Source: Chloroflexota bacterium (GTDB lineage Bacteria > Chloroflexota > Limnocylindria > P2-11E). From it: a DNA stretch of 61,610 bases. The translations under genes were made by a program, and so were the position numbers. The stretch is from the NCBI GenBank assembly GCA_021787445.1, contig JAJYLV010000006.1:1-61610 (forward strand), read 5' to 3'. Below the pieces are notes generated by a model. It was not told the DNA's origin. It was given only the letters and a program-made list of their open reading frames with translations, and did not search any database. Position 1 is the stretch's first letter. Each line of letters opens with the position of its first letter. Of this stretch, positions 33,556 to 57,576 are shown piece after piece.

Positions 33556-36500
33556 TCCGGTCTGCGCCCTCGCGCGCCGCTTGTGCCGGTACATCGCGCG
33601 GTCCGCCGCGTCGATCACCCCGTCGACCGTCGGCGCCGCCGTCTCGTCCGCCAAGCCCCACGAGATCGAAGGCAGCCGAGCACGATCGCCGAGCGCCGCC
33701 TGGGAGATCGCCGTCGCGAGGCGGCGCATGACGCGCTCGGCGACGAGGACCGGCTCGCCGGCGAAGAGGATCGCGAACTCGTCGCCGCCGAGCCGCGCGA
33801 CCACGTCCTGCTCTCGCACGCCCGCGTCGAGGATCTTGGCGATCCCCTGCAAGGCCTCGTCCCCGGCGCCGTGGCCCATCAGGTCGTTGACCTGCTTCAG
33901 GAGGTCGACGTCGACCAGCGCGACAGTGAGGTGGCTGCCGCCCGCGCGGGCCGCACGGAGAGCGGACTCGAGACGCTGGAAGAACACGCGCCGGTTGCGG
34001 AGCCCCGTGAGGGGGTCCGTCGACGCGGCTCGCTGGGCCGCGCGGTGGACGCTCGCGACGCGGACGGCCGCCGCGACCTGGCGGGAGACGGAGGTGAGCA
34101 GGCTCTCGTCGTCGGGACCGAACGCGTTGACGCGCGGGCTCTCCACACCGAGCACCCCCATGCGCTCGTCACCGATCTGGAGCGGGACGATGAGGCTCGA
34201 GACGACGCCGGGAGGCCCGATGAACCTGGGGTCGGCGCGCACGTCCGGCATGTTCTGGGGGATGCCGTGGTCCAACACCCACCAGCTGATGCCCTGACCG
34301 CGCTCGAGGTCTTGTCCGACGTAGGCCTGCGACGCGCCGACCGCGGCGCGGACCGCGAGGCGCTCCCCCGCCTCGTCGAGGATGAGGAGGAAGCCGTTCT
34401 CGTAGCCCTGGGCGTCGCACACGATCTCGAGCAGCCGCGCGGCGAGGCTGTCGAGGTCGAGGACCGTCGTGATCTCTCCCGCGATGCGCTGGAGGATGGC
34501 GAGCTGCCGCGCGTGCGTCCGGGTCGATCTCGCCAGACGCTCCAGAACGTCACCGGGTCCAGGGACGTTCTCGATCTCCTCATGCTCCATCGTGCTGACG
34601 CGCGAGAAGAACTGCGCGCCCTCGGATCTGTCCCGCTGAATGACGCGCAGGAACGCGTCGACGACGGCGGGATGGAACTGCGTCCCCCGGCACTGCCGCA
34701 GCTCATCGATGGCGAACGCGACGGGTTGCGGCTCCTTGTACGACCGACGGCTCACGATCACCTCGAAGGCATCCGCGACCGCGACGATGTAGGACGCGAG
34801 CGGTACGGCCTCGCCCGAGAGGCCGTCGGGATAGCCGAGGCCGTCGTAGCGCTCGTGGTGGCCGCGGATGACCGGCGCGAGCTCGGCGAGCGGCTCGACG
34901 GAGGACACGACCGAGCCGCCGAGCGCGGGGTGCGCGCGCATGATCACCCACTCCTCCTCCGAGAGCGGTCCCGGCCGGTTGAGGATGGCGTCCGGCACGC
35001 CGATCTTCCCGATGTCGTGCAGGAGCGCACCGAGCTGGACGCGGCGGATCTCGTCCGCGGGCAGGTCCATCTCTTCGGCGATGGTCCGCGCAAGCGCGGC
35101 GACCCGCGCGGAGTGGCTGCGTGTGTACGGGTCGCGGGCGTCGACGGCTGCCGCGAGCGCCCGGACGGATGCGAGGTACAGCTCTCGCGTGCGCGCGATG
35201 AGCGACGCGTTCTCGAATGCCGACGCCACGACCGTGGCGAGCGAGCGGAGCGTCGCGACGTCGCCCTCGTCGTACGCGTCGGGCGTGTACGACTGCGCCG
35301 AGAGCACACCGATGACGCGACGCCCGACGAGCAGCGGCACATGGACGGCCGACGCGCTCGCCTTCGAGCGGCCGCCGAAGGTACGGCCCGCGGACACGGC
35401 GGCCGCGCCCGCCGGCCCGACCAGGTACGGCTCTCCCGTCCGCACGACGTGACTGGTGGGGCCGTCGCCGAGCGGGAGGACATGGTGCTCGGTGTCGACC
35501 TCGCCGCGGTCCTCCTCGAAGATGAGCTCGAGCTCCTGCCGCACGTCGTCGTACTGCGCCAGGTAGAAGGCGTCGCGCGCCACGAGGCGACCCGCAGCAT
35601 CGTGCGCGAGCCGCGCGATCTCCGAAGCGTCGTGGACGAGCGCGAGGCGCCCCGCGAGGTCGTTGAGGAGCGTGAGCCTCTCGATGTGGCGCTCCCGCTC
35701 GCGGCGGGCGTCGGCCGCGCGGAGCGTCGCGCGCGCCGAATCGGCGAAGGCCGCGACCATCTGCTGGTCGACCTGGTCGAACGTTCGATATGGATCAGTC
35801 GTCCCGACGACGAGAACGGCGACGACCTCGCCGTGCCGACGGATGGGTGCGAGGACCGCGGCACGTCCGCCGACCTCGTCGAAGAACAGCTCGCTCCGGA
35901 CCTCGCCCGACCCGCCGCGCTCGTGCCCGTAGCCGTGGACGGCCATGAGCTCGCCGGACCGAACGACCTCGCGGACCAGCGGCCCGACTGGTCCGCGAAC
36001 GCCGCGCAGCCTAGCGGCCAAGCCCGCCGCGGCGACGACCTCGATCTCGCCGTGGGAGACGCGGCCGACCAGCGCGGCGTCGATGGCGAACGACGCCTGT
36101 GCGGCCTCGACCACGCGCGGAAGGATCTCCTCGGGTCGGCCGCCGATCGCGGCCCGCGACACCTCGTCGAGCCTGCGGGCCTGCGCGAGACGGCGTGCGT
36201 TGCGCAGAGCGATGGACGCGTGGGCGGCGAGGCTGTTCACCGCGGACAGCTCGTCGGTATCGAACGGTCGCGTCGTCGTCCTCGCGACGGTGAGGCACGC
36301 GGCCATCTCGCCCGAGACGAAGATCGGCACGCCGACGAGGGTGCGGATGCCGAGGTCGACGACGCTCGCGACACGCCTCGCGTGCCGGACGTAGTCCTCG
36401 CACACGACGGTCGATCGCCGTGCGAGCACCTCGCCGGACACGCCGTCCGTGCTGCTGCGCCTCATCCCGACGATCTGCTGCGCGAGGCCGGCGCCGGCCA

Positions 36501-37173
36501 CGACCTCGAACTCGTCTCCGCGGCGCAGGACCATGGCGGAATAGTCCGCGTCGACGACGGCGAGCGCGTCGTGCGGGATGGACCGCAGCACGGCGTCGGG
36601 CTCGCTCGCCGCCGCGATCTCTCGCGCCACGAGCTCGAGGTCGCGCGCGCGGCTCAACGCGGCGCTCGCGCGCCGCCGCTCACCGGTGTAGGTGCCGACC
36701 GCCGCGACGAACACGATGGAGATGCCCACCAGAGCGCCCGCCTCGGGGACGAGCGTCACGACGGGCGTCGCCGCGCCGTGGACGATGCGGTACCACTCCT
36801 CGCCGACGCGACCGATCAGGTATGCGGCGAGCGTCGGGAGCAGGGCGCGAGGACCGAAGCGTGGGAAGCCGAGGGCGCCGACCATGATCGGGACGACGAA
36901 CGCGATGCTGTCGCTGCGACCCGCCGCCGCGATCATCCAGAAGGCCCCCGCGAGCAGATCGGTGACGAAGACGGTCTTCGGGAACGTCAACACGCTGACC
37001 GGGCGGGGAGCGCGCGCGTCGATCCAGGCCAGGTACGCGGCGCTCACGCCCAGGAGCGCGACCGACCCGATGCCGGTGACGTCGCGGACGACCAGGACGA
37101 GCCACAAGGCCGCGAAGAACGCGGCCGCGACGTGCCCGACCAGAAAGAGATGCCGCAGAAGCCATCCCACCAC
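33553..37173 (-). CDS. membrane GAF/HD-GYP/GAF/GGDEF cyclic-di-GMP enzyme
   Basis: 1206 residues from GTG 37173. Several transmembrane helices fill residues 1-165. Three GAF-like domains follow (about 180-325, 340-480 and 500-650). An HD-GYP phosphodiesterase domain has LLHDIGKIGVPD near residue 718 and HHERYDGLGYPDGLSG. A further GAF (about 870-1030) and a C-terminal GGDEF domain complete it. The cyclase motif RLGGDEF near residue 1131 is intact. It has REQD five residues ahead, the RxxD I-site for product inhibition. Both synthesis and breakdown of c-di-GMP therefore appear possible in one chain. It lies 8 bases after the cupin gene and its end overlaps the valS promoter. Confidence 0.93.
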   Translation of the reverse strand: MVGWLLRHLFLVGHVAAAFFAALWLVLVVRDVTGIGSVALLGVSAAYLAWIDARAPRPVSVLTFPKTVFVTDLLAGAFWMIAAAGRSDSIAFVVPIMVGALGFPRFGPRALLPTLAAYLIGRVGEEWYRIVHGAATPVVTLVPEAGALVGISIVFVAAVGTYTGERRRASAALSRARDLELVAREIAAASEPDAVLRSIPHDALAVVDADYSAMVLRRGDEFEVVAGAGLAQQIVGMRRSSTDGVSGEVLARRSTVVCEDYVRHARRVASVVDLGIRTLVGVPIFVSGEMAACLTVARTTTRPFDTDELSAVNSLAAHASIALRNARRLAQARRLDEVSRAAIGGRPEEILPRVVEAAQASFAIDAALVGRVSHGEIEVVAAAGLAARLRGVRGPVGPLVREVVRSGELMAVHGYGHERGGSGEVRSELFFDEVGGRAAVLAPIRRHGEVVAVLVVGTTDPYRTFDQVDQQMVAAFADSARATLRAADARRERERHIERLTLLNDLAGRLALVHDASEIARLAHDAAGRLVARDAFYLAQYDDVRQELELIFEEDRGEVDTEHHVLPLGDGPTSHVVRTGEPYLVGPAGAAAVSAGRTFGGRSKASASAVHVPLLVGRRVIGVLSAQSYTPDAYDEGDVATLRSLATVVASAFENASLIARTRELYLASVRALAAAVDARDPYTRSHSARVAALARTIAEEMDLPADEIRRVQLGALLHDIGKIGVPDAILNRPGPLSEEEWVIMRAHPALGGSVVSSVEPLAELAPVIRGHHERYDGLGYPDGLSGEAVPLASYIVAVADAFEVIVSRRSYKEPQPVAFAIDELRQCRGTQFHPAVVDAFLRVIQRDRSEGAQFFSRVSTMEHEEIENVPGPGDVLERLARSTRTHARQLAILQRIAGEITTVLDLDSLAARLLEIVCDAQGYENGFLLILDEAGERLAVRAAVGASQAYVGQDLERGQGISWWVLDHGIPQNMPDVRADPRFIGPPGVVSSLIVPLQIGDERMGVLGVESPRVNAFGPDDESLLTSVSRQVAAAVRVASVHRAAQRAASTDPLTGLRNRRVFFQRLESALRAARAGGSHLTVALVDVDLLKQVNDLMGHGAGDEALQGIAKILDAGVREQDVVARLGGDEFAILFAGEPVLVAERVMRRLATAISQAALGDRARLPSISWGLADETAAPTVDGVIDAADRAMYRHKRRARAQTG

Positions 37174-43783: not shown

Positions 43784-46700
43784 CTAGGTGCGCGCGGCCG
43801 CCCGCCCCGGGCGCCGCCCCGTCCGGAGAGCGAACGCGCTCGTGAGGACGAACACCGCGAGTCCGACGACGACCCCGATGACGCCGGGCAGCGGCGACGC
43901 GGCGGGTGCCGGCGGGACGACCGCGTGCAGGCTCGCGGCGAAGGCCGGCGGTCTCGTCGGCGCCGGCGGCGTGGTCGGGAGCGGGTGCCAGCCGAGCTGC
44001 GCGGCCAGGGCGGTCGCCTGCCGCGCCGTCGCGCGATCGCCGGCGGCATCGAACAGGGCGGCCGCGATGGCGGCCTGACGCGCCCGGTCCGCGCGCGCGC
44101 TTGCCACGGGGCCCGCGGAGGGAGCACCCGCCGCTGATCCGCCCGCGAGCGCGTACGCCTCCTGCGCCAGCGCCAGGGCGATGTTCGCGGCCGGCATCTG
44201 CACGGCGGTCAACCGCCCCGTCGCGCAGGCGACGTAGTACAGCCACTGGCCGGCGACCGTGACGGGTGTCACCGTGTTCGCCGCCTGCGCGGAGCACGAC
44301 TCGTCCGGGAGCGCGCCGATCACGGATCCGGTGGTCGCGTCGATCGCCGAGCCGCCGGCGAAGATGAGCCCACCGCCGGCGGTGGCGTGGGCACCCGCCG
44401 CCGGGAACGCGAAGGACAGGCCGGCGCGCCAGAAGATCGAGCGGCCGTCGGTGCGATCGAGCGCGGCCACTACGTCGCCGAGGGGCTTGTACGCCGACGG
44501 CGGGAGCGGAGGGGGAGGCGTCGAGGACACGACGACCGGCGGATGTGTCGACGCCTGGCTGGGGTGGACGGACACGAGCAGCACCCGCTGCGGCGTGAGA
44601 ACGAGCTGGAAACCGGTGTCGAACCACAGGACCGTCTCCCAGAGAGGACGCCCGGTCGTCGCATCGACCGCGACGATGCCGTCGGCGACCGGGCCCACGC
44701 CGCCCGGCTGCGCTCGGCTGAGGCCGAGCTGCACGCTCAGGTACACGGTCCCATCGGACGCGGCCATGTCGACGAGCGACGCGACGATCAAGTGGTGAGC
44801 GGCCTGATCGAGGGTCGAGTACGCACCGTGGCTGACGGCTCGGAGGTAGGCGGAGACGCTCTGGTCCGTCCCGAACGCGCCGAGGTCGCGGTCGATGACC
44901 TGCGAGGCGGGACCCTGCCCGTAGGGGAAGTCCGTGAGCGCACGCTGCCAGAGCCACCGTCCGCCGGAGGCCGCGCCGATCCACAGGGGCGGCGGCTGCA
45001 ATGCGTAGCCCGCAGCGCAGCTCGAGCGCAGGAGCGTGCAGTTCGCGATCAGGACCACGTCGCCTCGAGACGAGCTCGTCACGCGCAAGGTCGGCGCATC
45101 GGCATAGCCGCCGGACCTCGTGTTCCAGTAGGGGCGCGCGACCGGCGCGGGCAGCGGAAGCGTCCACAGCGGCGCCGCGCTCGACGCGCGGAGCGCCTCG
45201 AGCCGCAGCGGGAACGTTGGCGCGGCGGACGTCGCGCCCGATGCGCCCGGAAGGCCGCCGCCGGTACGTACGGCGTAGAGGGTCCCGTTCACGGCGGCCA
45301 TCTGCGCGCAGCCGGCGCTCGTCGGGAGCGGTCCCCAGGCCGGGTCTCCGCTCAGCGTCATCGCCTCCGGTCCCTCAAAGGGTGACGCCGTACCGAGACG
45401 GCTCCACGAGGGCGGCCACCAGATGCTGTCGCGCCGCTGCCCGCAGACGACGGCCGCGCGTCCGTCCGTAACGGCTGGCTCGGACCGGTAGTCGTGCTCG
45501 GCCCACAGGAGCTGCCCCGTCTCCGCGGCGAGGCCGGCGAGCCAGCCGGGGACGAGCACACCATCCGCGACGACCGGCGGAGCGCTTGAGGTCAGACTCG
45601 GCGTGTCCGTGCACTGGGGCACGACACCGGGCTTGCACGCCCGGCCCAGGTCCGTCGGCACGCGGAACGCGACCTTCGCGTTGGCCACGCTCGAGGAGAA
45701 GAGGAGCGCACTCGGATCGTCGTTCGTCGCTCCGGCGTCGTGGCCGGGCTGCGGCCACGATCCGGGATCGGGAAGCGGCGAGGGGAGCACGACGTCGAAG
45801 GGCGGGCTCGACCCGCTGAAGGGCGCGTAGATCGGCCAACCTCCCGAGGGGTCTCCGGCGGTGAGGACGTCGCCTTTCACCAGGACCGGCACGCTGAGCC
45901 GCCCTGTCCACGTGCCGCCGCGGAAGGGACCGATCTGCTGGTAGAGGAAGCCGCTCCGGTCCGCGATCCAAGGACTGCCGGCGTAGAGGGACACGGTCGT
46001 GCCTCTCATGTCGACGGCGCGGACCGTCACGCCGAAAGGCTGATCGAGGTGCTGCGTCCCGATGGGCGAGAACGCGAACGCCGAGGGCGGCCGCTCGACC
46101 TGGAACGGCGGCGAGGTCGTGCGCGGCGTGCCGTCGCGGTCGGCGACCGTGAGGCGGTCGTTGCCGGGAACGTCTAGGAAGTAGTCGACCTTGGCGACGC
46201 CGGCGCTGAAGGTGATGCTCTCGCCCGCGGCGCCCGAGCGGTCGACGCCGTCGAGCGCGTCGGTCAGGGTCGCGACGGCACCGGAGTAGTCGTTAAGAAC
46301 GGACCCGTCAGCGGCGAGCGCCGTGATGGTCGTGGTCGTGCCCTGGTCGCGGAAGACGTCCGGCAGGCGCGTCGGGGCGAACGAGAACGACGATGGGACG
46401 GGCACGTCGATCCGCGCTCCGAGCGTCCCCGACGTCTGGGCGCCGTCGCTCGAGGCCCTGACGACGATCTCGTCGTTCCCAAGCGTCGCCGACTGCGCCG
46501 CAGCGATCGTCACCGTCGACGTCGCGCCCCCGGAGGAGATGTCGACGATCGCCGGCGAGAACCTGGCGTTCACCCCCGCCGGGAGAGGGCCCGCGATCGA
46601 CAGCGCCACCCGGCGGTACGCGCTGGTCCAGCTCGGTCCCGGGGACACGGTCACCGTCGCGCTCGCGGACGTTCCGGCGCGGACCGCGAGGAAGCTGGGA

Positions 46701-48346
46701 GAGATCGGGGGGATGAGGAGGTAGACGGGCGGCGGCGCGATGGCGACCGTTTGCGTGAGGTCGCCGACGTACGCGCTCTTGTCCGCCGCGGCGGCGACGG
46801 GGTACACGAGCCACGAGCCCGGAGGGGACACGCTGGTGGTCGAGAGCGCGTAAGAGGCCGAGGCGGACGATCCGCGGCCGAGTTGAGCCGACGGTGTCGT
46901 GACGCTGAACGCCCCCGCCGGCCCCCGTGGATCCGCGAAGTCCACGGTCCCCGACCAGCCGTTCACGCTGGTGACGCGGGCCGTCGCCGAGATCGCGCTC
47001 CCTTGGTAGACAGGGGAAGGAAGACCGCCGACGGTCATCGCCAGGCCGGGCACATTCACAGAGGGCGCAACGTCGAGGCGGTAGGCGTACCGGCCGTCGA
47101 AGACGAACGCCACCGGGCCGCTCGAGCTGGCTCCGGCCGCGAGGGCCTGCGTCCCGGTCGGCGAGCCCACCAGTCGCGACCAGAAGTCCCCCGTGGAGTC
47201 GACGCCGCCGACGTAGATCCCCGACGCGGTGGCGGCGAACGCGAGCCCGCGCTTGTGTCCTGGTATCGCGAACGGCGGGTCCGCCGCGACCGCGGTCACC
47301 ATCTGGTCGTACAGCGACGTCAGAGCGGAACCTTGGTAGACGAGGGTCCCTGGCCCGGTCGCGTAGCCGCCGCACTGCGGGCCGGCCAGACCGAGGAGGT
47401 AGCTTTGCGCCCCGGACCAGCTCGCGAACGTGGGCGAGCTCAAGGGACCGAAGGGGAACGCTCCCGGAGGACCGTTCCAGCTGCCTCCCCCGTTCCCCGT
47501 CCACCACACCGCGCCGGTCCGGTCGAAGAAGTAGCCCGTCCCGTACGCATCGAAGGCGAGGCCGCAGGCGCCGTTGTCGGGGAGGACGTACGACCAGTTG
47601 TTCCCGGCGTCCGGCGACATCCAGAGGCCCGGCTGCTCGACGTCGATGGTCGGCTCGCCTTCCGTCCCGACGCTCCACCGCGCCCAGATCCCGTATTCCC
47701 CCGGCACGCTCATGAAGAGCTGGCCCTGTGCGTTCACCGCCAGAGCGTCGATCTCGGGTGCCGCGTATACGTGGGTCGGGATCCACCTCTGCGCGGACAC
47801 GTTCTGGATGAACCAGACCTGAGCGTTGCCATAGCCGCCGTTGCCGACCACGCCGATCGGGGTCGTCGCCTGCGTGGCGGCGACGTAGATCGCGCCGGAC
47901 GACCCGTTCTTGAAGTTCGGGCTTACGGCGATGGCGGAGATGGCCTGACCCGCGAAGCCGATCGTCTGCCACGTGACGCCGCCGTCCGTCGTGGCCATGA
48001 CGCCCTGGTCCGTCGCGAGGACCGCGGTGCCGTCGCTGGCGAAGCTCGGGGAGACGACGATCTGTGGATCGCCCGACGACCCGAGCGGCGTCCGGGCCGT
48101 GATGACGCGTCCCCAGGGCTCCGAGCGCGTCTCGCTCGCCTCCGCCACCCGGCGCCCCAGGCGCGCCGAGCCGAAGCCTGCGGCGGTACCGGAAGCCGCG
48201 CCGAGGAGGGCCGGAATGGCGACGGCGACCAGTAGCCCGCGCAGATGAACGTCCTTCCTGGTCCTCAGCCCGGACGACACGTCCCGGATGGTACGTGCGC
48301 CCCTCGTGACATCAACCTGGCGCGTCGGGCTCTCGTCGCGTCGCAT
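43784..48346 (-). CDS. giant secreted propeller/Ig-like protein with C-terminal membrane anchor
   Basis: 1520 residues from ATG 48346; an in-frame GTG about 22 codons later would place the signal sequence (LLVAVAIPALLGAASGTAAG) closer to the N-terminus. Residues 80-430 form sialidase/VPS10-like propeller repeats (ATTDGGVTWQTIG, LWMSPDAGNNWSYV). Residues 440-850 are Ig-like beta-domains. Residues 870-1400 are a PQQ-type propeller (AVDATTGRPLWET, ALDRTDGRSIFW). The C-terminus has an Ala/Pro linker, one transmembrane helix (PGVIGVVVGLAVFVLTSAFAL) and an Arg-rich tail. It is probably anchored on the cell surface. No enzyme motif is seen; a binding or adhesion role is inference. Confidence 0.85.
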   Translation of the reverse strand: MRRDESPTRQVDVTRGARTIRDVSSGLRTRKDVHLRGLLVAVAIPALLGAASGTAAGFGSARLGRRVAEASETRSEPWGRVITARTPLGSSGDPQIVVSPSFASDGTAVLATDQGVMATTDGGVTWQTIGFAGQAISAIAVSPNFKNGSSGAIYVAATQATTPIGVVGNGGYGNAQVWFIQNVSAQRWIPTHVYAAPEIDALAVNAQGQLFMSVPGEYGIWARWSVGTEGEPTIDVEQPGLWMSPDAGNNWSYVLPDNGACGLAFDAYGTGYFFDRTGAVWWTGNGGGSWNGPPGAFPFGPLSSPTFASWSGAQSYLLGLAGPQCGGYATGPGTLVYQGSALTSLYDQMVTAVAADPPFAIPGHKRGLAFAATASGIYVGGVDSTGDFWSRLVGSPTGTQALAAGASSSGPVAFVFDGRYAYRLDVAPSVNVPGLAMTVGGLPSPVYQGSAISATARVTSVNGWSGTVDFADPRGPAGAFSVTTPSAQLGRGSSASASYALSTTSVSPPGSWLVYPVAAAADKSAYVGDLTQTVAIAPPPVYLLIPPISPSFLAVRAGTSASATVTVSPGPSWTSAYRRVALSIAGPLPAGVNARFSPAIVDISSGGATSTVTIAAAQSATLGNDEIVVRASSDGAQTSGTLGARIDVPVPSSFSFAPTRLPDVFRDQGTTTTITALAADGSVLNDYSGAVATLTDALDGVDRSGAAGESITFSAGVAKVDYFLDVPGNDRLTVADRDGTPRTTSPPFQVERPPSAFAFSPIGTQHLDQPFGVTVRAVDMRGTTVSLYAGSPWIADRSGFLYQQIGPFRGGTWTGRLSVPVLVKGDVLTAGDPSGGWPIYAPFSGSSPPFDVVLPSPLPDPGSWPQPGHDAGATNDDPSALLFSSSVANAKVAFRVPTDLGRACKPGVVPQCTDTPSLTSSAPPVVADGVLVPGWLAGLAAETGQLLWAEHDYRSEPAVTDGRAAVVCGQRRDSIWWPPSWSRLGTASPFEGPEAMTLSGDPAWGPLPTSAGCAQMAAVNGTLYAVRTGGGLPGASGATSAAPTFPLRLEALRASSAAPLWTLPLPAPVARPYWNTRSGGYADAPTLRVTSSSRGDVVLIANCTLLRSSCAAGYALQPPPLWIGAASGGRWLWQRALTDFPYGQGPASQVIDRDLGAFGTDQSVSAYLRAVSHGAYSTLDQAAHHLIVASLVDMAASDGTVYLSVQLGLSRAQPGGVGPVADGIVAVDATTGRPLWETVLWFDTGFQLVLTPQRVLLVSVHPSQASTHPPVVVSSTPPPPLPPSAYKPLGDVVAALDRTDGRSIFWRAGLSFAFPAAGAHATAGGGLIFAGGSAIDATTGSVIGALPDESCSAQAANTVTPVTVAGQWLYYVACATGRLTAVQMPAANIALALAQEAYALAGGSAAGAPSAGPVASARADRARQAAIAAALFDAAGDRATARQATALAAQLGWHPLPTTPPAPTRPPAFAASLHAVVPPAPAASPLPGVIGVVVGLAVFVLTSAFALRTGRRPGRAAART

Positions 48347-48362
48347 CGTCGGATCGACCGCG

Positions 48363-49190
48363 CTATAGGGCGAGCTCCATCCCCTCGTACGCGACGAGCA
48401 CCTCGAGATCGCCGGCGCGCTCTCGCGCGAGCTCCTGCGCGCGCTTCCCGATCTCGTCGAGCGCGTCGTCGGATCGATCGGGATCGTGGTGATAGAGCAC
48501 GAGCCGGCGGACGCCGGCGCGCGCGGCGACGTCGACGGCGCTCGCGATCGTCGAGTGGCCCCAACCCTTCTTGTAGTCGTCGTCCTGGTACTGCGCGTCG
48601 TGGATGAGGCAGTCGGCGCCCGACGCGAGCGCGATGACGGGGTTCTCCCTGCCGGAGAAGGGGTCCTCCGTGTCCGTCGCGTAGACGAGAGAGCGACCGT
48701 CCGCCTCGACGCGATACGCGAGCGCGGGTGCCGGGTGATAGAGGAGCGTGGAGCGGACGTGGAAGGGGCCGGCGTCCCGCACGCCGTCGTGGGGCATCTC
48801 TTCGATGTCCAGCCTCGCGGGGATGGCGTCGAGGTCGACGGGGAAGAACGGATCGTCCATCCCGATCCCGAGCAGATCCTTCAGCGGGTGGGCGTGCGCG
48901 GGCGCGTGGATACGGATCGCGGTGCGCGGGTCGTACGCCGGACGGAAGAAAGGGATGCCCTGGATGTGATCCCAGTGCAGGTGCGAGAGGAACATCTCGA
49001 GCGAGAGCGGGCCGTTCGCCTTCTGCGCGAGATGGAGGCCGAGCTCGCGCAGGCCCGTCCCGGCGTCGAGCACGAGGATCGATCCGCGCGCGTCGCGCAC
49101 CTCGACGCACGCGGTGTTGCCGCCGTATCGCACCGTGCGCTGCCCCGGCGTGGGGATCGACCCCCGCGTGCCCCAGAAGCGGGCCCTCAC
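48363..49190 (-). CDS. metallo-beta-lactamase-fold hydrolase, phosphodiesterase-like
   Basis: 275-residue MBL-fold protein. The metal motif SHLHWDHIQG near residues 90-99 is the HxHxDH signature, with later ligands in YATDTEDPF and ADCLIHDAQY and a C-terminal YHHDPDRSDDAL. The N-terminus FWGTRGSIPTPG, then RYGGNTACVEV, is that of the PhnP/TaR3-like branch, which includes phosphodiesterases. The ATG overlaps the GAF-HD-GYP TGA (ATGA). Hydrolysis of the cyclic nucleotide made by the cyclase of the same operon is a reasonable but untested guess. Confidence 0.88.
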   Translation of the reverse strand: MRARFWGTRGSIPTPGQRTVRYGGNTACVEVRDARGSILVLDAGTGLRELGLHLAQKANGPLSLEMFLSHLHWDHIQGIPFFRPAYDPRTAIRIHAPAHAHPLKDLLGIGMDDPFFPVDLDAIPARLDIEEMPHDGVRDAGPFHVRSTLLYHPAPALAYRVEADGRSLVYATDTEDPFSGRENPVIALASGADCLIHDAQYQDDDYKKGWGHSTIASAVDVAARAGVRRLVLYHHDPDRSDDALDEIGKRAQELARERAGDLEVLVAYEGMELAL

Positions 49191-50605
49191 GCAGCACCGC
49201 CCGCGGGCTTCGCCGCGGCCTGGTCGCGCTCCGAGAGCTCCGCCGATTCCTGGAGCGAGCCCATGCCCTCGTCGCTCGGCTTGGGCCAGGTGGATCTCAG
49301 CTCCTCGAGCGTCGCGACGAGCCGCGGCAGCGCGCGCTCCACTGCGGCGAAGACGTCGGGGTCGAGGTGCTCCCCCGTCATCGATCGCATGATCTCGACC
49401 GTCTTCTCGATCGCGTACGCCGGCTTGTAGTAGCGCGGCGCCGTGAGCGCGTCGAAGACGTCCGCCGCCGCGACGATCCGCGCCCCCAGCGTGATCTGGT
49501 CGCCCTTGAGCCCGAGCGGGTAGCCCTTCCCGTCCATCCGCTCGTGGTGCTGCGCCGCCATGAGCGGGACCTCGCGCATGTCGGCGGGGAAGCGCAGGTG
49601 GCGCAGGAACTCCCCCGTCTTCTCGGCATGCGCCTTCATGTACGCGAACTCCGCGTCGTCGAGCTTACCCGCCTTCTGGAGGAAGCGGTCGCGCACGGCG
49701 ATCTTCCCGTAGTCGTGCAGGAGGCCGGCGGTGCGCACGCGCTCGATCTCGGCGGACGAGAGCCCGACCGCCTCGGCGATGACCTCGGCGTAGCGCGTCA
49801 CGCGGCGGCTGTGGCCGGCGGTCTGCTGGTCGCGCGCGTCGACGGTGGCGGCGAGGGTCTCGACGAGCGACATCCACAGCCCGCGCTGGCCCTCGACGAG
49901 CTGCGCGTTCTCGACGCACACGGCCGCGGACGCGGCGAGCGACGAGAGCGTGCCCTCGTCCTCCTCGCTGAACGCGCCGCCGCGCTTGTTCACCGCCTGG
50001 AACACGCCGATGACCGTGCCGTCGTGACCCGTCATCGGGAAGGTCAGGAGGTTGCGGGTCCGGTATCCCGTCCGGCGGTCGACCTCCTGATCGAACCGAG
50101 GGTCCGCGTACGCGTCGGGGACCGCGATCGTCGTCCCCGTCGCGGCGACGGTGCCCGCGATGCCCGCGCCGAGCGGCACGCGTATCTCGTCGGCGCCGAG
50201 CGCGACCTTCGACCAAAGCTCGCCCTTCTCGCGGTCGACGAGGAAGACGGTCGCGCGGTCGCAGTCGATGATCTTCGTCGTCGCGGTGGCGATCTCGCGG
50301 AGGAGCGCCGCCAGGTCGGTGACGCCCATGAGCTTGCGGGTGACATCGAGGATGAGGTCCAGCCGGCCCGCATCGGAGACCGTGCGGCCGGCCCGAGGCT
50401 GTGCCTCTCCGGAGCCGGCCTCTCCCGACGCTTCCGCGTCGCGGCGGTCCCCGTCGCGCCGCTGGCCGGCGCGTCGCTGGCCCTGCCGGCGGTCGGGTCC
50501 CGCCCGCCGCTGCGCCTGTCGCCGATCCGCGGCCGTCCGCCGGTCGCCGGCGCGCCGCTCGCGCCCGCGGCGATCCGCGCTGCGGCGGCGCTCGCTCTCG
50601 TTCAT
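49187..50605 (-). CDS. GAF-HD-GYP cyclic-di-GMP phosphodiesterase
   Basis: 472 residues. The first 65 are Arg-rich repeats of the RRxGDRR type. A GAF domain (about 80-235) contains VNKRGGAFSEEDE, which fits the NKxnFx3DE motif of cyclic-nucleotide-binding GAFs. The HD-GYP domain (about 265-430) has LLHDYGKIAVRD and HHERMDGKGYPLGL, followed by ADVFDALTA. All metal positions look intact. ATG 50605 has a GGGGAGG ribosome site. Overlaps at both ends (ATGA) lock it between the GAF and MBL genes. Confidence 0.93.
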   Translation of the reverse strand: MNESERRRSADRRGRERRAGDRRTAADRRQAQRRAGPDRRQGQRRAGQRRDGDRRDAEASGEAGSGEAQPRAGRTVSDAGRLDLILDVTRKLMGVTDLAALLREIATATTKIIDCDRATVFLVDREKGELWSKVALGADEIRVPLGAGIAGTVAATGTTIAVPDAYADPRFDQEVDRRTGYRTRNLLTFPMTGHDGTVIGVFQAVNKRGGAFSEEDEGTLSSLAASAAVCVENAQLVEGQRGLWMSLVETLAATVDARDQQTAGHSRRVTRYAEVIAEAVGLSSAEIERVRTAGLLHDYGKIAVRDRFLQKAGKLDDAEFAYMKAHAEKTGEFLRHLRFPADMREVPLMAAQHHERMDGKGYPLGLKGDQITLGARIVAAADVFDALTAPRYYKPAYAIEKTVEIMRSMTGEHLDPDVFAAVERALPRLVATLEELRSTWPKPSDEGMGSLQESAELSERDQAAAKPAGGAA

Positions 50606-51105
50606 CTCGCCCCTCCCCTGGGTAGCGTCCAGTGCTCGAGCACAGGTCCCACCGCTTCCGCGATCCGCTCGATGAGGATCTGGTCGTGACGCTCGAAGGC
50701 GCCACCGCCCTTGTTCAGGACCTGGATCACGCCCACGACGTTCCGGCCGTCTGCCGACCAGACAGGCACGGCAAGGATATTCGACGTTCGGTATCCGGTC
50801 ATCCGGTCGACGGCGGGATCGAAGCGCGGGTCGGCGTAGGCCTGCGGCACGTTGATCGTCTCACCCGTCGCCGCGACCTGGCCCGCGAGACCGCGCCCGA
50901 TGGGAAGGCGGATCTCGACGCCGATCCGCTGCGCGACCGCCGAGCGGAGCTCCCCCTGATCGTGGTCGACGATGTACACGGTGCAGCGGTCGGCGTCCGT
51001 CGCGTGCGCGCAGAGGTCGGTGACCCGCTCGAGGTACGCGTGCCGATCGTGCTCGACCGCGAGGTGACCCAGGGTCACCATGACGAGCATCTCCTTGTCG
51101 TCCAC
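50602..51105 (-). CDS. stand-alone GAF-domain protein
   Basis: 167 residues from GTG 51105, essentially a single GAF domain. Strand and helix segments TDADRCTVYIVDHDQGELRS, PIGRGLAGQVAATGETINVP and DPAVDRMTGYRTSNIL parallel those of the adjacent GAF-HD-GYP protein. It ends with LNKGGGAFERHDQ, close to the NKxnFx3DE motif. The two GAFs look like a duplication. It has no output domain, so it may sense a nucleotide and act on a partner such as the cyclase. Confidence 0.9.
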   Translation of the reverse strand: MDDKEMLVMVTLGHLAVEHDRHAYLERVTDLCAHATDADRCTVYIVDHDQGELRSAVAQRIGVEIRLPIGRGLAGQVAATGETINVPQAYADPRFDPAVDRMTGYRTSNILAVPVWSADGRNVVGVIQVLNKGGGAFERHDQILIERIAEAVGPVLEHWTLPRGGAR

Positions 51106-51129
51106 CTGATCAGCCGTCGCCTCGGCCCG

Positions 51130-53151
51130 TCAGTGGAAGCCGGCCACCGTCGCGCGGCCCACGGGGAGCTCGGGCGGCGGAGCGGGGTTGGGGTTGGCGA
51201 CGAGGCCGACCCGGTCGACCTGGTAGCACGCGACGGGCTCGCTCCGCCCCTTGACGAAGATCGAGCCGAGGTCGATCGCGACGACGTCGTCACCGAGACG
51301 GGCGAGGGTGTCCTTGCTGCACGCGACCTGGTCCCGCCGCGCGATGTCGCTCGAGGTGAGGCGCGACGCGACGTTCACCGTGTCGCCGATGACCGTGTAC
51401 TCCATGCGCCCGTGCGCTCCGAGGAACCCGGCGACCGCGGCACCGGTGTTGATCCCGAAGCCGAACGAGACGTCGGGGCCGCCCTTCGCGCGCTCCGCCA
51501 CGACGAGCTTCTGGATCTCGAGCGCGCACTCGACCGCCTTGCGCGCGTGGTCCGGGACCTCCACGGGCGCGTTCCAGATGACCATGATGTTGTCGCCGTT
51601 GTACTTGTTGACGGTCCCTTGGTACCTGTTCACGACCTCGACCATCCCGTCGAAGTAGCGGTTGAGCGTCGCCATGAGGGCCTGCGGATCCATCCCCTCG
51701 GAGATCGTCGTGAACCCGCGGATGTCGCCGAAGAGAGCGGTGATCTCGCGCATCTGGCCGCCGAGCTGCAGGCCGCCCTTCTCCTCCGTGTCCATGATGG
51801 TCCGGGCCACGGCGGGCGTCACGAAGCGGCCGAACGTCGACTGTGTGCGCGCGACGGCCAGCTGCTCCTCGACGAGGAGGTAGCCCAGCGTCACGACCCA
51901 CCAGAACACGCTCGGCGGCAGGTATCCGAGCGACGGTACGGCGACGGGCCCGTTCCCGATGAGCGGGGACACGGCGTTGATGAAGGCGCCGAGCTCGACG
52001 AAGGAGAAGACCGCGAGGAGGACGAGCCCCAGGAGGAACCCGATCAGCCGCAGCCGCACGACGAGGAAGATGCCCGCGATGGTCAGCAGCACGACCTCGA
52101 CGAGCGTCACCGGGAAGCCCTGGTCGGGGAGCGGGTACCTGTTCGTGAAGATGGACTGCGCGGCGTTGGCCCAGATCTCGACGCCCCACATCTTCTGCTG
52201 CGCGCTGTTCGGCACGGGGTAGTTGTCGGGCTCCGCGGAGAGGCCGTGCGCCCCGACGAAGACGGTGCGCCCGAGGATGAGCTGGCGCGGGATCCTGCCA
52301 TCGATGACGTCGAGCATCGAGACGACGCAGAACGCGTCCGGCTGCGTGCAGGGCGCCGGACCGCCGAGCGAGACGGGCTTCACCGGGTCGTGCGGCGGCG
52401 CCGCGAAGTACACGCGCGTCGAGCCGCCGGCGCTGAGCGGGATGACGCGGTCGCCGAACGCCGCCGTCGGAAGAACGAGCGAGTCGCCGGAGAGGTGGAT
52501 CCTGTCGACCTGCCCGCCGATCTGCCGCGCGGCGGTGAGGAGCGCTAGCCCGTAGTACGGCTTCCCGTCCGGACCCTTGATGACCATCTGCGCCTCGCGG
52601 ACCCGCGAGTCGGTCTCCGGGTTGACGTTCACCGTCCCCAGGCCCGCGGCCGCGTCGCGCAGCATGGGGATGGGCAGCTTCACGCTCGTCCACGTCTGCG
52701 CGTGGCCGCCATAGGTGCCCTCGCCGGTGCCCTGCATCGCGAGGTACACGTTCCCGAGATCCTTGATCGCCGCGGCGAAGGCGACGTCCTCGGTCGGGTG
52801 GTCGGAGGGGTCGTAGAAGGCGATGTCGAAGCCGATCGCCTTCGGGTCCATCGGCTTGAGCGCGTTGAGGAGGTCGACGTAGGCCTGGCGCGGGAGGGGC
52901 CAGCGACCGTACTTCTCGACCGTCGCGTCGTCGAGCGCGATGACCGTCACCTGGTTCCGCACCTTCGCCGGGGCGGCCGTGATCACGAAGTCGTAGGCGG
53001 CCGACTGGAGGCTGTCGTTGAAGTACCGCGTGTCGACGAAGTACGCGGAGATCAGGGTCGAGAGGACGATGATGGCCGCGAGGACGGCGCGCTGGCGGCT
53101 CTTGCGGTCGCGAAGCACCCTGCCCTCCTCATCCGTGCGACGCGTCCCCAA
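51130..53151 (-). CDS. CHASE2-domain class III adenylate/guanylate cyclase
   Basis: 673 residues from TTG 53151. One N-terminal transmembrane helix precedes an extracytoplasmic CHASE2 sensor (residues about 45-330). Three transmembrane helices (about 340-420) lead to the cyclase domain (about 445-630). Catalytic segments are TALFGDIRGFTTIS with metal Asp, NKYNGDNIMVIWNAP with a Lys typical of purine binding, and RMEYTVIGDTVNVASRL. The Thr in EYTVIGD suggests the class IIIb adenylate cyclase group. It is the first gene of the signalling operon, 24 bases before the GAF gene. Confidence 0.93.
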   Translation of the reverse strand: MGTRRTDEEGRVLRDRKSRQRAVLAAIIVLSTLISAYFVDTRYFNDSLQSAAYDFVITAAPAKVRNQVTVIALDDATVEKYGRWPLPRQAYVDLLNALKPMDPKAIGFDIAFYDPSDHPTEDVAFAAAIKDLGNVYLAMQGTGEGTYGGHAQTWTSVKLPIPMLRDAAAGLGTVNVNPETDSRVREAQMVIKGPDGKPYYGLALLTAARQIGGQVDRIHLSGDSLVLPTAAFGDRVIPLSAGGSTRVYFAAPPHDPVKPVSLGGPAPCTQPDAFCVVSMLDVIDGRIPRQLILGRTVFVGAHGLSAEPDNYPVPNSAQQKMWGVEIWANAAQSIFTNRYPLPDQGFPVTLVEVVLLTIAGIFLVVRLRLIGFLLGLVLLAVFSFVELGAFINAVSPLIGNGPVAVPSLGYLPPSVFWWVVTLGYLLVEEQLAVARTQSTFGRFVTPAVARTIMDTEEKGGLQLGGQMREITALFGDIRGFTTISEGMDPQALMATLNRYFDGMVEVVNRYQGTVNKYNGDNIMVIWNAPVEVPDHARKAVECALEIQKLVVAERAKGGPDVSFGFGINTGAAVAGFLGAHGRMEYTVIGDTVNVASRLTSSDIARRDQVACSKDTLARLGDDVVAIDLGSIFVKGRSEPVACYQVDRVGLVANPNPAPPPELPVGRATVAGFH

Positions 53152-53180: not shown

Positions 53181-54248
53181 TCAGCCGTCGCCCCTCGCGA
53201 GGCGCGCGAGCACGGAGCGCAGCACCGCGATCGCCCGGGCGTGATCCTCGAGGCGCAGCCGCTCCATGGGTGTGTGGTCGTACGCGCTGTCGCCCGGGCC
53301 GTACGCGACCATCGGGCAGCGCCAGACCGGCGCGAGGACGTTCATGTCGCTCGTGCCGCTCTTCGCGAGCGTGCGCGCGGTACCGCCCGCCTCGGCGATC
53401 GCGCGCACGAAGGCGCGCGCGAGCGCGCTCGTGCGCTCCGTCCGCACCGGCTCCTCCGACGCGGCGCGCGTCACCGTCGCGCTCGTGCCCTCCTCGGCGG
53501 TCACCGCCGCGCGCAGCTCGCGCTCGATCTCGTCGACGGCGGCGCCCGGAGGGATCCGGTAGCCGACCTTCAGCCACGCGCGCTCCGCGAGGCCGTCGCT
53601 CTCGCCCGCGCGCATCCCCTCGAGTCGACAGTCGAGCCGGTCGAACGCACGCGCTCCCCCACGCGCGGCGGCGACGGCACGGACGCGCTCCCACACCGCG
53701 AGCGCCTCCTCCGTCAGCGTCGGCCCGGGCGCGGCGCCGTGACGCGCGGCGCGCTCGAGAGCGACCTCGGCCACGAGCCGTCCCTTGTACGCGACCGTTA
53801 GGCCGTCCCACCCCGACGGCTCGCCGACGACGCAGTGATCGGGCGCGGGCAGCGTCGCGCGGTAGCGCGCGCCGGCGCTCGTCGGCGACTCCTCCTCGAC
53901 CGCGCCGACGACGGTCACCCGCAGGCCGGGCAGCCGCACGCTCGCGGCCGAGACGAACGCCGCGAGGGGGCCTTTCGCGTCGACGGCGCCGCGTCCGACG
54001 AGCTCGCCGTCCTCGATCCGCACGGGGAAGATCCCGGGCACCGTGTCGATGTGCCCGAGGAGCACGACGTGCGTCGGCCCGTCGCCGATCTCCCCGACGG
54101 CGTTGCCCGCCGCGTCGACCTCGGAGCGGAAGCCGCGATCGCGCATGCGCTCGACGAGCCACGCGACCGCGCGCGCCTCGTCGCGCGAGGCGCTCGGGAT
54201 CTCGACGAGGCCGCGGACGAGGGCGAGGTCGGCGGGGTCGAGGCTCAC
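53181..54248 (-). CDS. lysK: LysW-carrier amino-acid hydrolase (LysK/ArgE-like M20)
   Basis: 355-residue M20 metallopeptidase that releases the finished amino acid from LysW. Metal ligands are in [10 protein letters not shown] and [10 protein letters not shown], with the catalytic Glu pair in GAVEEESP, and further residues in VGEPSGWDG and KSGTSDMNV. Family members without the dimerisation lid are usual for LysK. The GTG at 54248 overlaps the lysJ TGA (GTGA). Lysine or ornithine can be the product depending on the pathway. Confidence 0.88.
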
Positions 54249-57058: not shown

Positions 57059-57482
57059 CGTCCTCGTCTACCGCCACGACCCCCGCGACCGGGCCAAGCA
57101 GAACGCGGCCCTCAAGCTCTTCCGGAGCCTGGCCGAGGCCGAGCGCGCCGCGACGAGCGCCCAATGCCTGGCTGAGTTCTACCGGGTCGTAACGCGGCGC
57201 CTGCCCGAGCCGATCTCCCCGCGCGAAGCGCTGGCCGAGGTCGCGCGCTACGCCGAGATCGTCACGGTCCTCGACGTCACCGCCGTGGCGGTCCTCGAGG
57301 CCTGCCGCGGATCCGCCGAGCATGGGCTCTCGGTGTGGGATGCGCTGGTCTGGGCGTGCGCCAAGCTCGAGCAGATCCCCTTCCTCCTGACCGAGGACGG
57401 CGAGCACGGCCGGGCGATCGAAGGCGTCACGTACCTCGATCCGTTCGACCGGCGCTTCGACCTGGAGGGGCTCCTGGCCTGA
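57045..57482 (+). CDS. VapC-type PIN-domain toxin
   Basis: 145 residues from CTG 57045, the first plausible start before the conserved LLDTDVLVYRHDP. Acidic residues are the Asp in LDTDVLVY, Glu in CLAEFYRVV, Asp in SVWDALVWACA and Asp in LLTEDGEHGR. All appear intact. It overlaps the antitoxin gene by 14 bases. Its TGA starts an array of 12-bp repeats that contain the same CCTGAG sequence. Confidence 0.88.
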   Translation: MLDTDVLVYRHDPRDRAKQNAALKLFRSLAEAERAATSAQCLAEFYRVVTRRLPEPISPREALAEVARYAEIVTVLDVTAVAVLEACRGSAEHGLSVWDALVWACAKLEQIPFLLTEDGEHGRAIEGVTYLDPFDRRFDLEGLLA

Positions 57483-57576
57483 GTCCTCGCCTGAGTCCTC
57501 GCCTGAGTCCTCGCCTGAGTCCTCGCCTGAGTCCTCGCCTGAGTCCTCGCCTGAGTCCTCGCCTGAGTCCTCGGCC
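57481..57576. repeat. 12-bp tandem repeat, about eight units
   Basis: GAGTCCTCGCCT is repeated seven times exactly (57481-57564), followed by a variant unit ending GGCC. The array begins inside the vapC stop codon and ends 44 bases before the lysY stop, in the space between two convergent genes. Slipped-strand copying of the vapC end explains it; copy number probably varies between strains. Confidence 0.93.

What the first reader, a model, noticed from the sequence alone, without database searches (positions are those of the whole stretch)
48363..53151. Four-gene operon linking a class III cyclase to c-di-GMP hydrolysis
CHASE2-cyclase, a lone GAF, GAF-HD-GYP and an MBL-fold hydrolase lie in one direction with ATGA overlaps at two of the three junctions and a 24-base gap at the third. 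Both GAFs carry a motif like NKxnFx3DE (NKRGGAFSEEDE is exact; NKGGGAFERHDQ is close), seen in cGMP/cAMP-binding GAFs. The layout suggests: an outside signal drives cyclic-nucleotide synthesis, GAFs sense it, HD-GYP lowers c-di-GMP, and the MBL protein may destroy the messenger. I do not know this exact combination as a described system.
Basis: partly seen in the sequence, partly recalled or inferred. Interest (0 to 1): 0.72.

Follow-up and report, generated by a model that had tools for sequence, protein, structure and literature searches.

The report
cAMP-controlled c-di-GMP breakdown operon
Four neighbouring genes in a soil and groundwater bacterium (Chloroflexota) appear to make the signal cAMP, sense it, use it to break down a second signal (c-di-GMP) and then destroy the cAMP; the parts resemble known ones, but this packaged set, and a wider pairing of the destroying enzyme with cAMP-type sensors in other phyla, seem undescribed.

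Summary
The four genes are real, on the minus strand, and in the stated order; one 4-base overlap is ATGA, the other GTGA. The order is conserved: 19 of 21 related loci keep all four genes on one contig. In another family of the order it survives without the neighbouring lysine genes, and there HD-GYP and MBL are one fused protein. The cyclase has every class III catalytic residue and the Lys/Thr pair expected of an adenylate cyclase. Both GAFs carry the cAMP-contact residues of CyaB2 (Arg, Thr, Val, Asp, Thr) plus NKFD[E/Q]; none of about 22 other GAFs aligned from this genome does. Their nearest relatives outside the order are, in both cases examined, GAF-GAF-PAS-cyclases built like CyaB1/CyaB2. 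HD-GYP keeps all PmGH residues checked except one metal ligand (Glu to Gln). The MBL model is among those closest to YhfI, a cAMP/cGMP phosphodiesterase. MBL relatives elsewhere sit directly before a GAF effector in 31 of 63 loci. A cAMP-activated GAF-HD-GYP (Tlr0485) is already published, so the core logic is known. The four-gene unit, lone GAF, MBL partner and the recurring MBL-GAF pairing appear new. No activity was tested.

The parts
51130..53151 (-). CHASE2-class III (IIIb, Lys/Thr type) adenylate cyclase; start more likely GTG at 53118; hydrophobic segments 22-40 and around 347-430, CHASE2 40-360, catalytic 467-645
   Evidence: D476, K516, D520, T586, N593, R597 invariant in 19 orthologues
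50602..51105 (-). Lone 167-aa GAF domain of the cAMP-binding (CyaB/PDE) type, no output domain
49187..50605 (-). GAF-HD-GYP c-di-GMP phosphodiesterase with a low-complexity Arg/Asp-rich N-terminus; GAF 97-230, HD-GYP 251-418
   Evidence: PmGH (4mcw) match E 3.2e-75 over residues 81-436
48363..49190 (-). MBL-fold hydrolase, candidate cyclic-nucleotide phosphodiesterase (SHLHWDH, H152, D173, H212, H234)
50602..50605 (-). 4-base ATGA overlap, GAF stop / HD-GYP start
49187..49190 (-). 4-base GTGA overlap, HD-GYP stop / MBL start
51106..51129 (-). 24-nt gap between cyclase and lone GAF; most often 1-13 nt, or a short overlap, in relatives; holds an IS481-type element in one relative
53181..54242 (-). 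Flanking gene, not part of the module: [LysW]-lysine hydrolase (LysK type), conserved upstream neighbour in the family but not in G028

Best explanation
A self-contained cAMP-to-c-di-GMP relay. (1) A membrane cyclase with a CHASE2 domain responds to an unknown signal and makes cAMP [cyclase identity shown by sequence; cAMP as product inferred from active-site residues; signal unknown]. (2) cAMP binds the GAF of the GAF-HD-GYP enzyme and stimulates c-di-GMP hydrolysis, as in the published Tlr0485 [pocket residues shown; binding and sign of regulation inferred]. (3) The lone GAF binds cAMP too, and most likely pairs in trans with the GAF of the HD-GYP enzyme (a split tandem GAF) or buffers cAMP [inferred, weak]. 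(4) The MBL protein hydrolyses cAMP and resets the switch [fold and metal ligands shown; substrate inferred from YhfI resemblance, operon position, fusion to HD-GYP, and recurrent pairing with cAMP-type GAF effectors].
For: Order conserved in 19 of 21 relatives and kept in another family without the lysine genes. HD-GYP and MBL are one ORF in G028. The cyclase has K516 where the CHASE2-regulated guanylate cyclase Cya2 has E488, and Cya2 E488K becomes an adenylate cyclase. The CyaB2 cAMP contacts R291, T293, I308, D356, N359 map to R, T, V, D, T in both GAFs, and to none of about 22 other GAFs aligned from the same genome. Closest solved structures are PmGH, PDE10A, CyaB2 and the Lcd1-cAMP complex. 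Nearest GAFs elsewhere in 400 Chloroflexota genomes belong, in the two cases examined, to GAF-GAF-PAS-cyclases. Operon, known cNMP-binding and MBL-adjacent GAFs form one clade, support 0.94. HD-GYP keeps the PmGH metal, catalytic and c-di-GMP residues checked but one. The genome has 9 GGDEF matches, so c-di-GMP is probably made. The MBL model's top PDB hits are YhfI and its Bacillus relative, then RNase Z and yeast PDE1; YhfI prefers cAMP/cGMP. Elsewhere 31 of 63 MBL relatives have a GAF starting within 450 nt downstream, against 4 GAFs elsewhere in 788 kb. Limnochordia has MBL, GAF-HD-GYP and CHASE2-cyclase side by side.
Against: No assay. PmGH, whose GAF ligand I could not establish, has nearly the same pocket residues, so the set does not prove cAMP. 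The MBL scores far below the NF041851 equivalog cut-off (67 vs 400 bits) and about equally with RNase Z profiles. The HD-GYP lacks the third-metal glutamate of PmGH (Q261). Genus g3 lacks the cyclase at the locus but keeps the other genes; these cells have other class III cyclases. No PilZ receptor was found. The related genomes are nearly all draft MAGs.
Confidence: 0.52

Rival explanations
1. The relay exists but the MBL does not destroy cAMP: it acts on another phosphodiester (for example an RNA or a linear dinucleotide left by HD-GYP) and is linked for a different reason.
For: RNase Z profiles score as high as the cyclic-nucleotide PDE profile (75 vs 67 bits); RNase Z is the best PDB sequence match.
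Against: Fold search puts YhfI and its Bacillus relative level with or above RNase Z; fusion to HD-GYP in G028; pairing with cAMP-type GAF effectors in Myxococcota where the partner has no HD-GYP.
Confidence: 0.25
2. The GAFs bind a ligand other than cAMP (cGMP or another small molecule) or serve only in dimerisation; the gene cluster is a loose signalling neighbourhood.
For: GAFs are promiscuous; NKFDE residues do not contact ligand; PmGH shares the pocket set; Val replaces CyaB2 Ile308.
Against: Full CyaB2 contact set present in both operon GAFs and absent from about 22 other aligned GAFs of the genome; nearest relatives elsewhere are the GAFs of CyaB-type cyclases; cyclase residues predict cAMP.
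Confidence: 0.15
3. Chance or lineage inertia: genes stay together only because they sit beside conserved lysine-biosynthesis genes.
For: LysK is directly upstream in nearly all family members.
Against: G028 keeps the four genes with LysK 5.6 kb away and fuses two of them; Limnochordia, deltaproteobacterial MAGs and Syntrophomonadaceae show some of the same partners together.
Confidence: 0.05
4. An anti-phage cyclic-nucleotide system (Pycsar-like) with a class III cyclase and an Apyc1-like MBL.
For: PADLOC PycC models match the cyclase domain (best 79 bits); Apyc1 is among the MBL fold hits.
Against: The PycC match covers only the general cyclase domain; no Pycsar effector present; CHASE2 sensor; K/T adenylate-type residues; lone GAF present in all 10 order genomes at least 90% complete, with a stable position, unlike defence islands.
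Confidence: 0.03

Closest known systems
[quoted passage not shown] reported in PMC8846402, ref. 194)
   Same: GAF fused to HD-GYP; predicted cAMP to c-di-GMP hydrolysis
   Different: Here encoded in one operon with a cyclase, a lone GAF and an MBL hydrolase; the Tlr0485 sequence and its gene context were not examined here
PmGH of Persephonella marina (4mcw; PMC4159591)
   Same: GAF-HD-GYP over the whole length (E 3.2e-75); same substrate and catalytic residues
   Different: Third-metal ligand E185 is Q261 here; the GAF ligand of PmGH was not established from what I read
CyaB1/CyaB2 of Anabaena (tandem GAF-PAS-adenylate cyclase)
   Same: Same GAF type and cAMP-contact residues; relatives in other Chloroflexota have this architecture
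   Different: Here the GAFs are on separate proteins from the cyclase, which has CHASE2 instead
Cya2 of Synechocystis (CHASE2-regulated class III cyclase)
   Same: CHASE2 sensor plus class III catalytic domain
   Different: Cya2 is a guanylate cyclase with Glu488; here the residue is Lys, as in the E488K adenylate variant
Atypical class-II PDEs YhfI, Rv1339, Corynebacterium CpdA
   Same: MBL fold, [T/S]HXHXDH; YhfI is among the top fold matches
   Different: 18-21% identity to YhfI in the fold alignments; far below the NF041851 cut-off; embedded in a signalling operon
Lcd1 (GAF-GGDEF) of Leptospira and Bd1971 (cNMP-EAL) of Bdellovibrio
   Same: cAMP controls c-di-GMP turnover
   Different: Opposite output (synthesis) or a different sensor domain and EAL catalysis; operon context not examined

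Membership tests
CHASE2-class III adenylate cyclase | CHASE2 and class III catalytic domains in one membrane protein | tested here: met
   Pfam PF05226 3.4e-35 and PF00211 3.4e-24; hydrophobic segments
CHASE2-class III adenylate cyclase | Two metal Asp, transition-state Asn/Arg, Lys (not Glu) at the base-selecting position | tested here: met
   D476, D520, N593, R597, K516, T586 invariant in 19 sequences
CHASE2-class III adenylate cyclase | Converts ATP to cAMP | not testable with these tools
   needs enzyme assay
cAMP-binding (CyaB/PDE type) GAF | NKFDE motif | tested here: met
   HD-GYP GAF exact; lone GAF NKFDQ with invariant Gln, so met in 4 of 5 positions there
cAMP-binding (CyaB/PDE type) GAF | CyaB2 cAMP-contact residues R291, T293, I308, D356, N359 | tested here: met
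   R, T, V, D, T in both; Val and Thr are the residues of PDE2A at those two positions
cAMP-binding (CyaB/PDE type) GAF | Groups with known cNMP-binding GAFs | tested here: met
   clade support 0.94 against other GAFs of the genome
cAMP-binding (CyaB/PDE type) GAF | Binds cAMP | not testable with these tools
   binding assay needed
HD-GYP c-di-GMP phosphodiesterase | HD dyad, GYP motif, substrate Arg/Lys | tested here: met
   H297 D298, G361 Y362 P363, R391, K394 present and invariant
HD-GYP, trinuclear (E/D-T-G) subgroup of PmGH | Glu/Asp at position 185 of PmGH | tested here: not met
   Q261, invariant
Atypical class-II cyclic-nucleotide PDE (Rv1339/YhfI/CpdA) | [T/S]HXHXDH metal motif | tested here: met
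   S69-HLHWDH, invariant
Atypical class-II cyclic-nucleotide PDE (Rv1339/YhfI/CpdA) | Curated NCBIfam NF041851 cut-off (400 bits) | tested here: not met
   67 bits; so not filed as a member, only as working like one
Atypical class-II cyclic-nucleotide PDE (Rv1339/YhfI/CpdA) | Closest fold | tested here: inconclusive
   YhfI and its Bacillus relative lead, RNase Z close behind
RNase Z | Curated TIGR02651 cut-off (293 bits) | tested here: not met
   75 bits, in two pieces
Pycsar anti-phage system | Pycsar cyclase plus dedicated effector | tested here: not met
   only generic cyclase-domain matches; no effector match among the five proteins scanned

The most novel reading that the evidence does not exclude
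The operon is one form of a widespread, undescribed cyclic-nucleotide signalling cassette: a dedicated MBL phosphodiesterase paired with a cAMP-type GAF effector, where the output is exchangeable (HD-GYP in Chloroflexota, Limnochordia and some deltaproteobacterial MAGs; sigma-54 activators in Myxococcota) and a CHASE2 adenylate cyclase is sometimes included.
Probability: 0.45. Interest if true: 0.75.

Novelty: new variant of a known kind. Interest (0 to 1): 0.6.

Why it matters
It would give a compact, genetically encoded link from an external signal through cAMP to c-di-GMP, with its own off-switch, in a phylum where second-messenger circuits are little studied. It would also assign a function to a large unnamed MBL family and predict cAMP as ligand for many GAF-sigma-54 activators of myxobacteria, where the ligand of such GAFs is usually unknown. 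Each prediction can be tested with one purified protein.

Tried and rejected
Chance clustering: rejected by conservation, by the G028 locus and by the HD-GYP-MBL fusion. Housekeeping RNase Z: rejected on score. Pycsar defence: rejected, no effector and a stable vertical pattern. Guanylate cyclase: rejected on K516. PDB sequence search of the MBL gave only weak RNase Z matches, so structure was used. NKFDE alone was set aside as evidence because its residues do not touch the ligand. Promoter and terminator scans found nothing. A taxonomy look-up failed on the name format; the phylum rests on the names of the matching records. Literature searches found no paper on this four-gene set or on MBL-GAF pairing, but subscription papers are not held.

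Full report
What is there. The region 48363-53151 encodes, on the minus strand, a 673-aa CHASE2-class III cyclase, a 167-aa lone GAF, a 472-aa GAF-HD-GYP protein and a 275-aa MBL hydrolase. The junctions are a 24-nt gap, an ATGA overlap and a GTGA overlap. The cyclase probably starts at GTG 53118, with GAGGAGG just upstream. Upstream in the same direction are the lysine-type genes LysK, an aminotransferase and an amino-acid kinase; downstream, 16 nt away, is a 1520-aa ORF without Pfam match. The window lies in a 2.5-Mb draft genome; its matching relatives are Chloroflexota MAGs.

Conservation. The lone GAF was found in 22 of 29 genomes of the order and in 10 of 10 of those at least 90% complete. 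Of 21 related loci read, 19 carry all four genes in the same order on one contig. One (G018) is split at a contig end between cyclase and GAF. One (G006) lacks the cyclase, and a second genome of the same genus (G012) shows the same gap before its contig ends. G008 has an IS481-type transposase gene between cyclase and GAF. In G028, of another family, the four genes persist although LysK is 5.6 kb away, and GAF-HD-GYP and MBL are a single open frame. In a sample of 400 Chloroflexota genomes no orthologue of the lone GAF was found outside the order.

Cyclase. Both metal aspartates (D476, D520), N593 and R597 are invariant among 19 orthologues, with K516 and T586 in the base-selecting positions. 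The solved Cya2 domain has Glu at the K516 position in the HMMER alignment (that 2w01 is Cya2 is from my own knowledge). Cya2 is CHASE2-regulated, and its E488K variant has adenylate cyclase activity (PMC5995499). This predicts cAMP.

GAFs. The NKFDE motif is present (exact in the HD-GYP GAF, NKFDQ in the lone GAF), but its residues do not contact ligand (PMC11977230). Stronger evidence is the set of cAMP contacts of CyaB2 GAFb (R291, T293, I308, D356, N359; PMC4411481). Both operon GAFs have R, T, V, D, T there, while none of about 22 other GAF domains aligned from the same genome has the set. One further GAF, in a histidine kinase, has the contacts but a broken NKFDE. PDB sequence and fold searches return PmGH, CyaB2, PDE10A, PDE2A, PDE5 and the Lcd1-cAMP complex. 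Among the closest GAFs elsewhere in the phylum, the two examined lie in GAF-GAF-PAS-cyclase proteins built like CyaB1/CyaB2, as does one in G012. In a FastTree analysis the operon GAFs, the known cNMP-binding GAFs and the MBL-adjacent GAFs form one clade with support 0.94, apart from the other GAFs of the genome. PmGH shares the residues except Ser for Thr, so cAMP is likely but not proven.

HD-GYP. It matches PmGH along its length (E 3.2e-75). Of 16 PmGH metal, catalytic, substrate and GYP-loop positions checked, all but one are conserved; E185, a ligand of the trinuclear centre, is an invariant Gln (Q261) here. It is therefore likely active, perhaps with a two-metal site. The genome has 9 GGDEF and 4 HD-GYP matches but no PilZ match.

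MBL. SHLHWDH, H152, D173, H212 and H234 are all present and invariant. The AlphaFold model (mean pLDDT 83) has as its best PDB matches B. anthracis BA1088 and B. subtilis YhfI, then RNase Z, with yeast PDE1, PhnP and Apyc1 further down. YhfI strongly prefers cAMP/cGMP (PMC9117128) and belongs to the atypical class-II PDEs with motif [T/S]HXHXDH (PMC9293780). The curated NF041851 cut-off is not reached (67 of 400 bits), so it is not filed as a member.

The wider pattern. One scan of 84,980 species for MBL relatives gave 63 loci outside these Chloroflexota. In 31 of them a GAF domain starts within 450 nt downstream of the MBL gene, whereas only 4 other GAFs occur in the 788 kb read. Of the 31 GAFs, 28 keep Arg and 28 Thr at the cAMP-contact positions, and 30 keep the Asp. 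Five GAF partners run through Pfam were GAF-sigma-54 activators (L098, L115, L116, L125, and L130, where the partner is about 1.2 kb away). Limnochordia (L094) has MBL, GAF-HD-GYP and CHASE2-cyclase in a row. Two deltaproteobacterial MAGs (L083, L087) have MBL next to GAF-HD-GYP. A Syntrophomonadaceae MAG (L133) has MBL overlapping a CHASE2-cyclase, with a GAF-HD-GYP nearby on the other strand. In L083, L087 and L094 the GAF pockets deviate (first contact Gly or Ala), so the ligand may differ there. The 63 loci are the best matches to this MBL, not a balanced sample.

How it most likely works. CHASE2 signal, then cAMP, then GAF-HD-GYP activation and c-di-GMP loss, with MBL degrading cAMP. Shown: genes, conservation, residues, folds, fusion, co-occurrence. 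Inferred: ligand, substrate, sign of regulation, role of the lone GAF. My separate estimates are: cyclase makes cAMP 0.85; HD-GYP GAF binds cAMP 0.75; HD-GYP hydrolyses c-di-GMP 0.8; MBL hydrolyses cAMP 0.6; lone GAF acts by pairing with the HD-GYP GAF 0.3. The loss of the local cyclase in one genus fits a diffusible messenger made by other cyclases, but also weakens a strict four-gene unit.

Comparison. The cAMP-activated GAF-HD-GYP Tlr0485 and the cAMP-activated GAF-GGDEF Lcd1 are published (PMC8846402), and Bd1971 is a cAMP-sensing EAL enzyme (PMC6717892). The relay is thus of a known kind. The four-gene packaging, the lone GAF, the MBL partner and the recurring MBL-GAF pairing were not found in the papers searched. 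Verdict: a real, conserved, well-supported new variant, with biochemistry still to be done.

Noticed in passing
window 34063-36600 (-): A 1218-aa open frame with several GAF domains and an HD-GYP (HD_5 at 34663-35157) lies in the same window; those of its GAFs that could be aligned lack the cAMP-contact set and served as an internal contrast.
   Followed up: partly
window 43784-48346 (-): A 1520-aa ORF with no Pfam match starts 16 nt after the MBL gene; it was not found next to the module in relatives.
   Followed up: partly
L045:10239-12197 (+): Natural fusion of GAF-HD-GYP with the MBL hydrolase in one ORF in another family of the order.
   Followed up: yes
L046 and L135: Genus g3 genomes (G006, G012) lack the CHASE2-cyclase between LysK and the lone GAF; G012 carries a CyaB-like GAF-GAF-PAS-cyclase elsewhere (L134).
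   Followed up: partly
L037:10628-11638 (+): IS481-type transposase gene inserted between cyclase and lone GAF in G008.
   Followed up: yes
L041:11637-12026 (+) and 13 other relatives: A small YtfJ-like protein (weak PF09579 match, just below cut-off) follows MBL directly in 14 relatives but was not found in the window.
   Followed up: partly
L098, L115, L116, L125, L130: MBL homologues directly followed (about 1.2 kb away in L130) by GAF-sigma-54 activators whose GAFs, where aligned, carry the cAMP-contact residues.
   Followed up: partly
L072:7025-8038 (+): A GAF-GGDEF protein near an MBL-GAF pair: a possible opposite output on c-di-GMP.
   Followed up: no
L177:3799-4986 (+): The genome's third cAMP-like GAF is in a HisKA_3 histidine kinase with broken NKFDE, near a GAF-GGDEF gene; similar GAF frames of about 400 aa are seen across the family.
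   Followed up: partly
window about 57380-57560: Short tandem repeat (SPRL / RRGL repeated) inside overlapping open frames.
   Followed up: no
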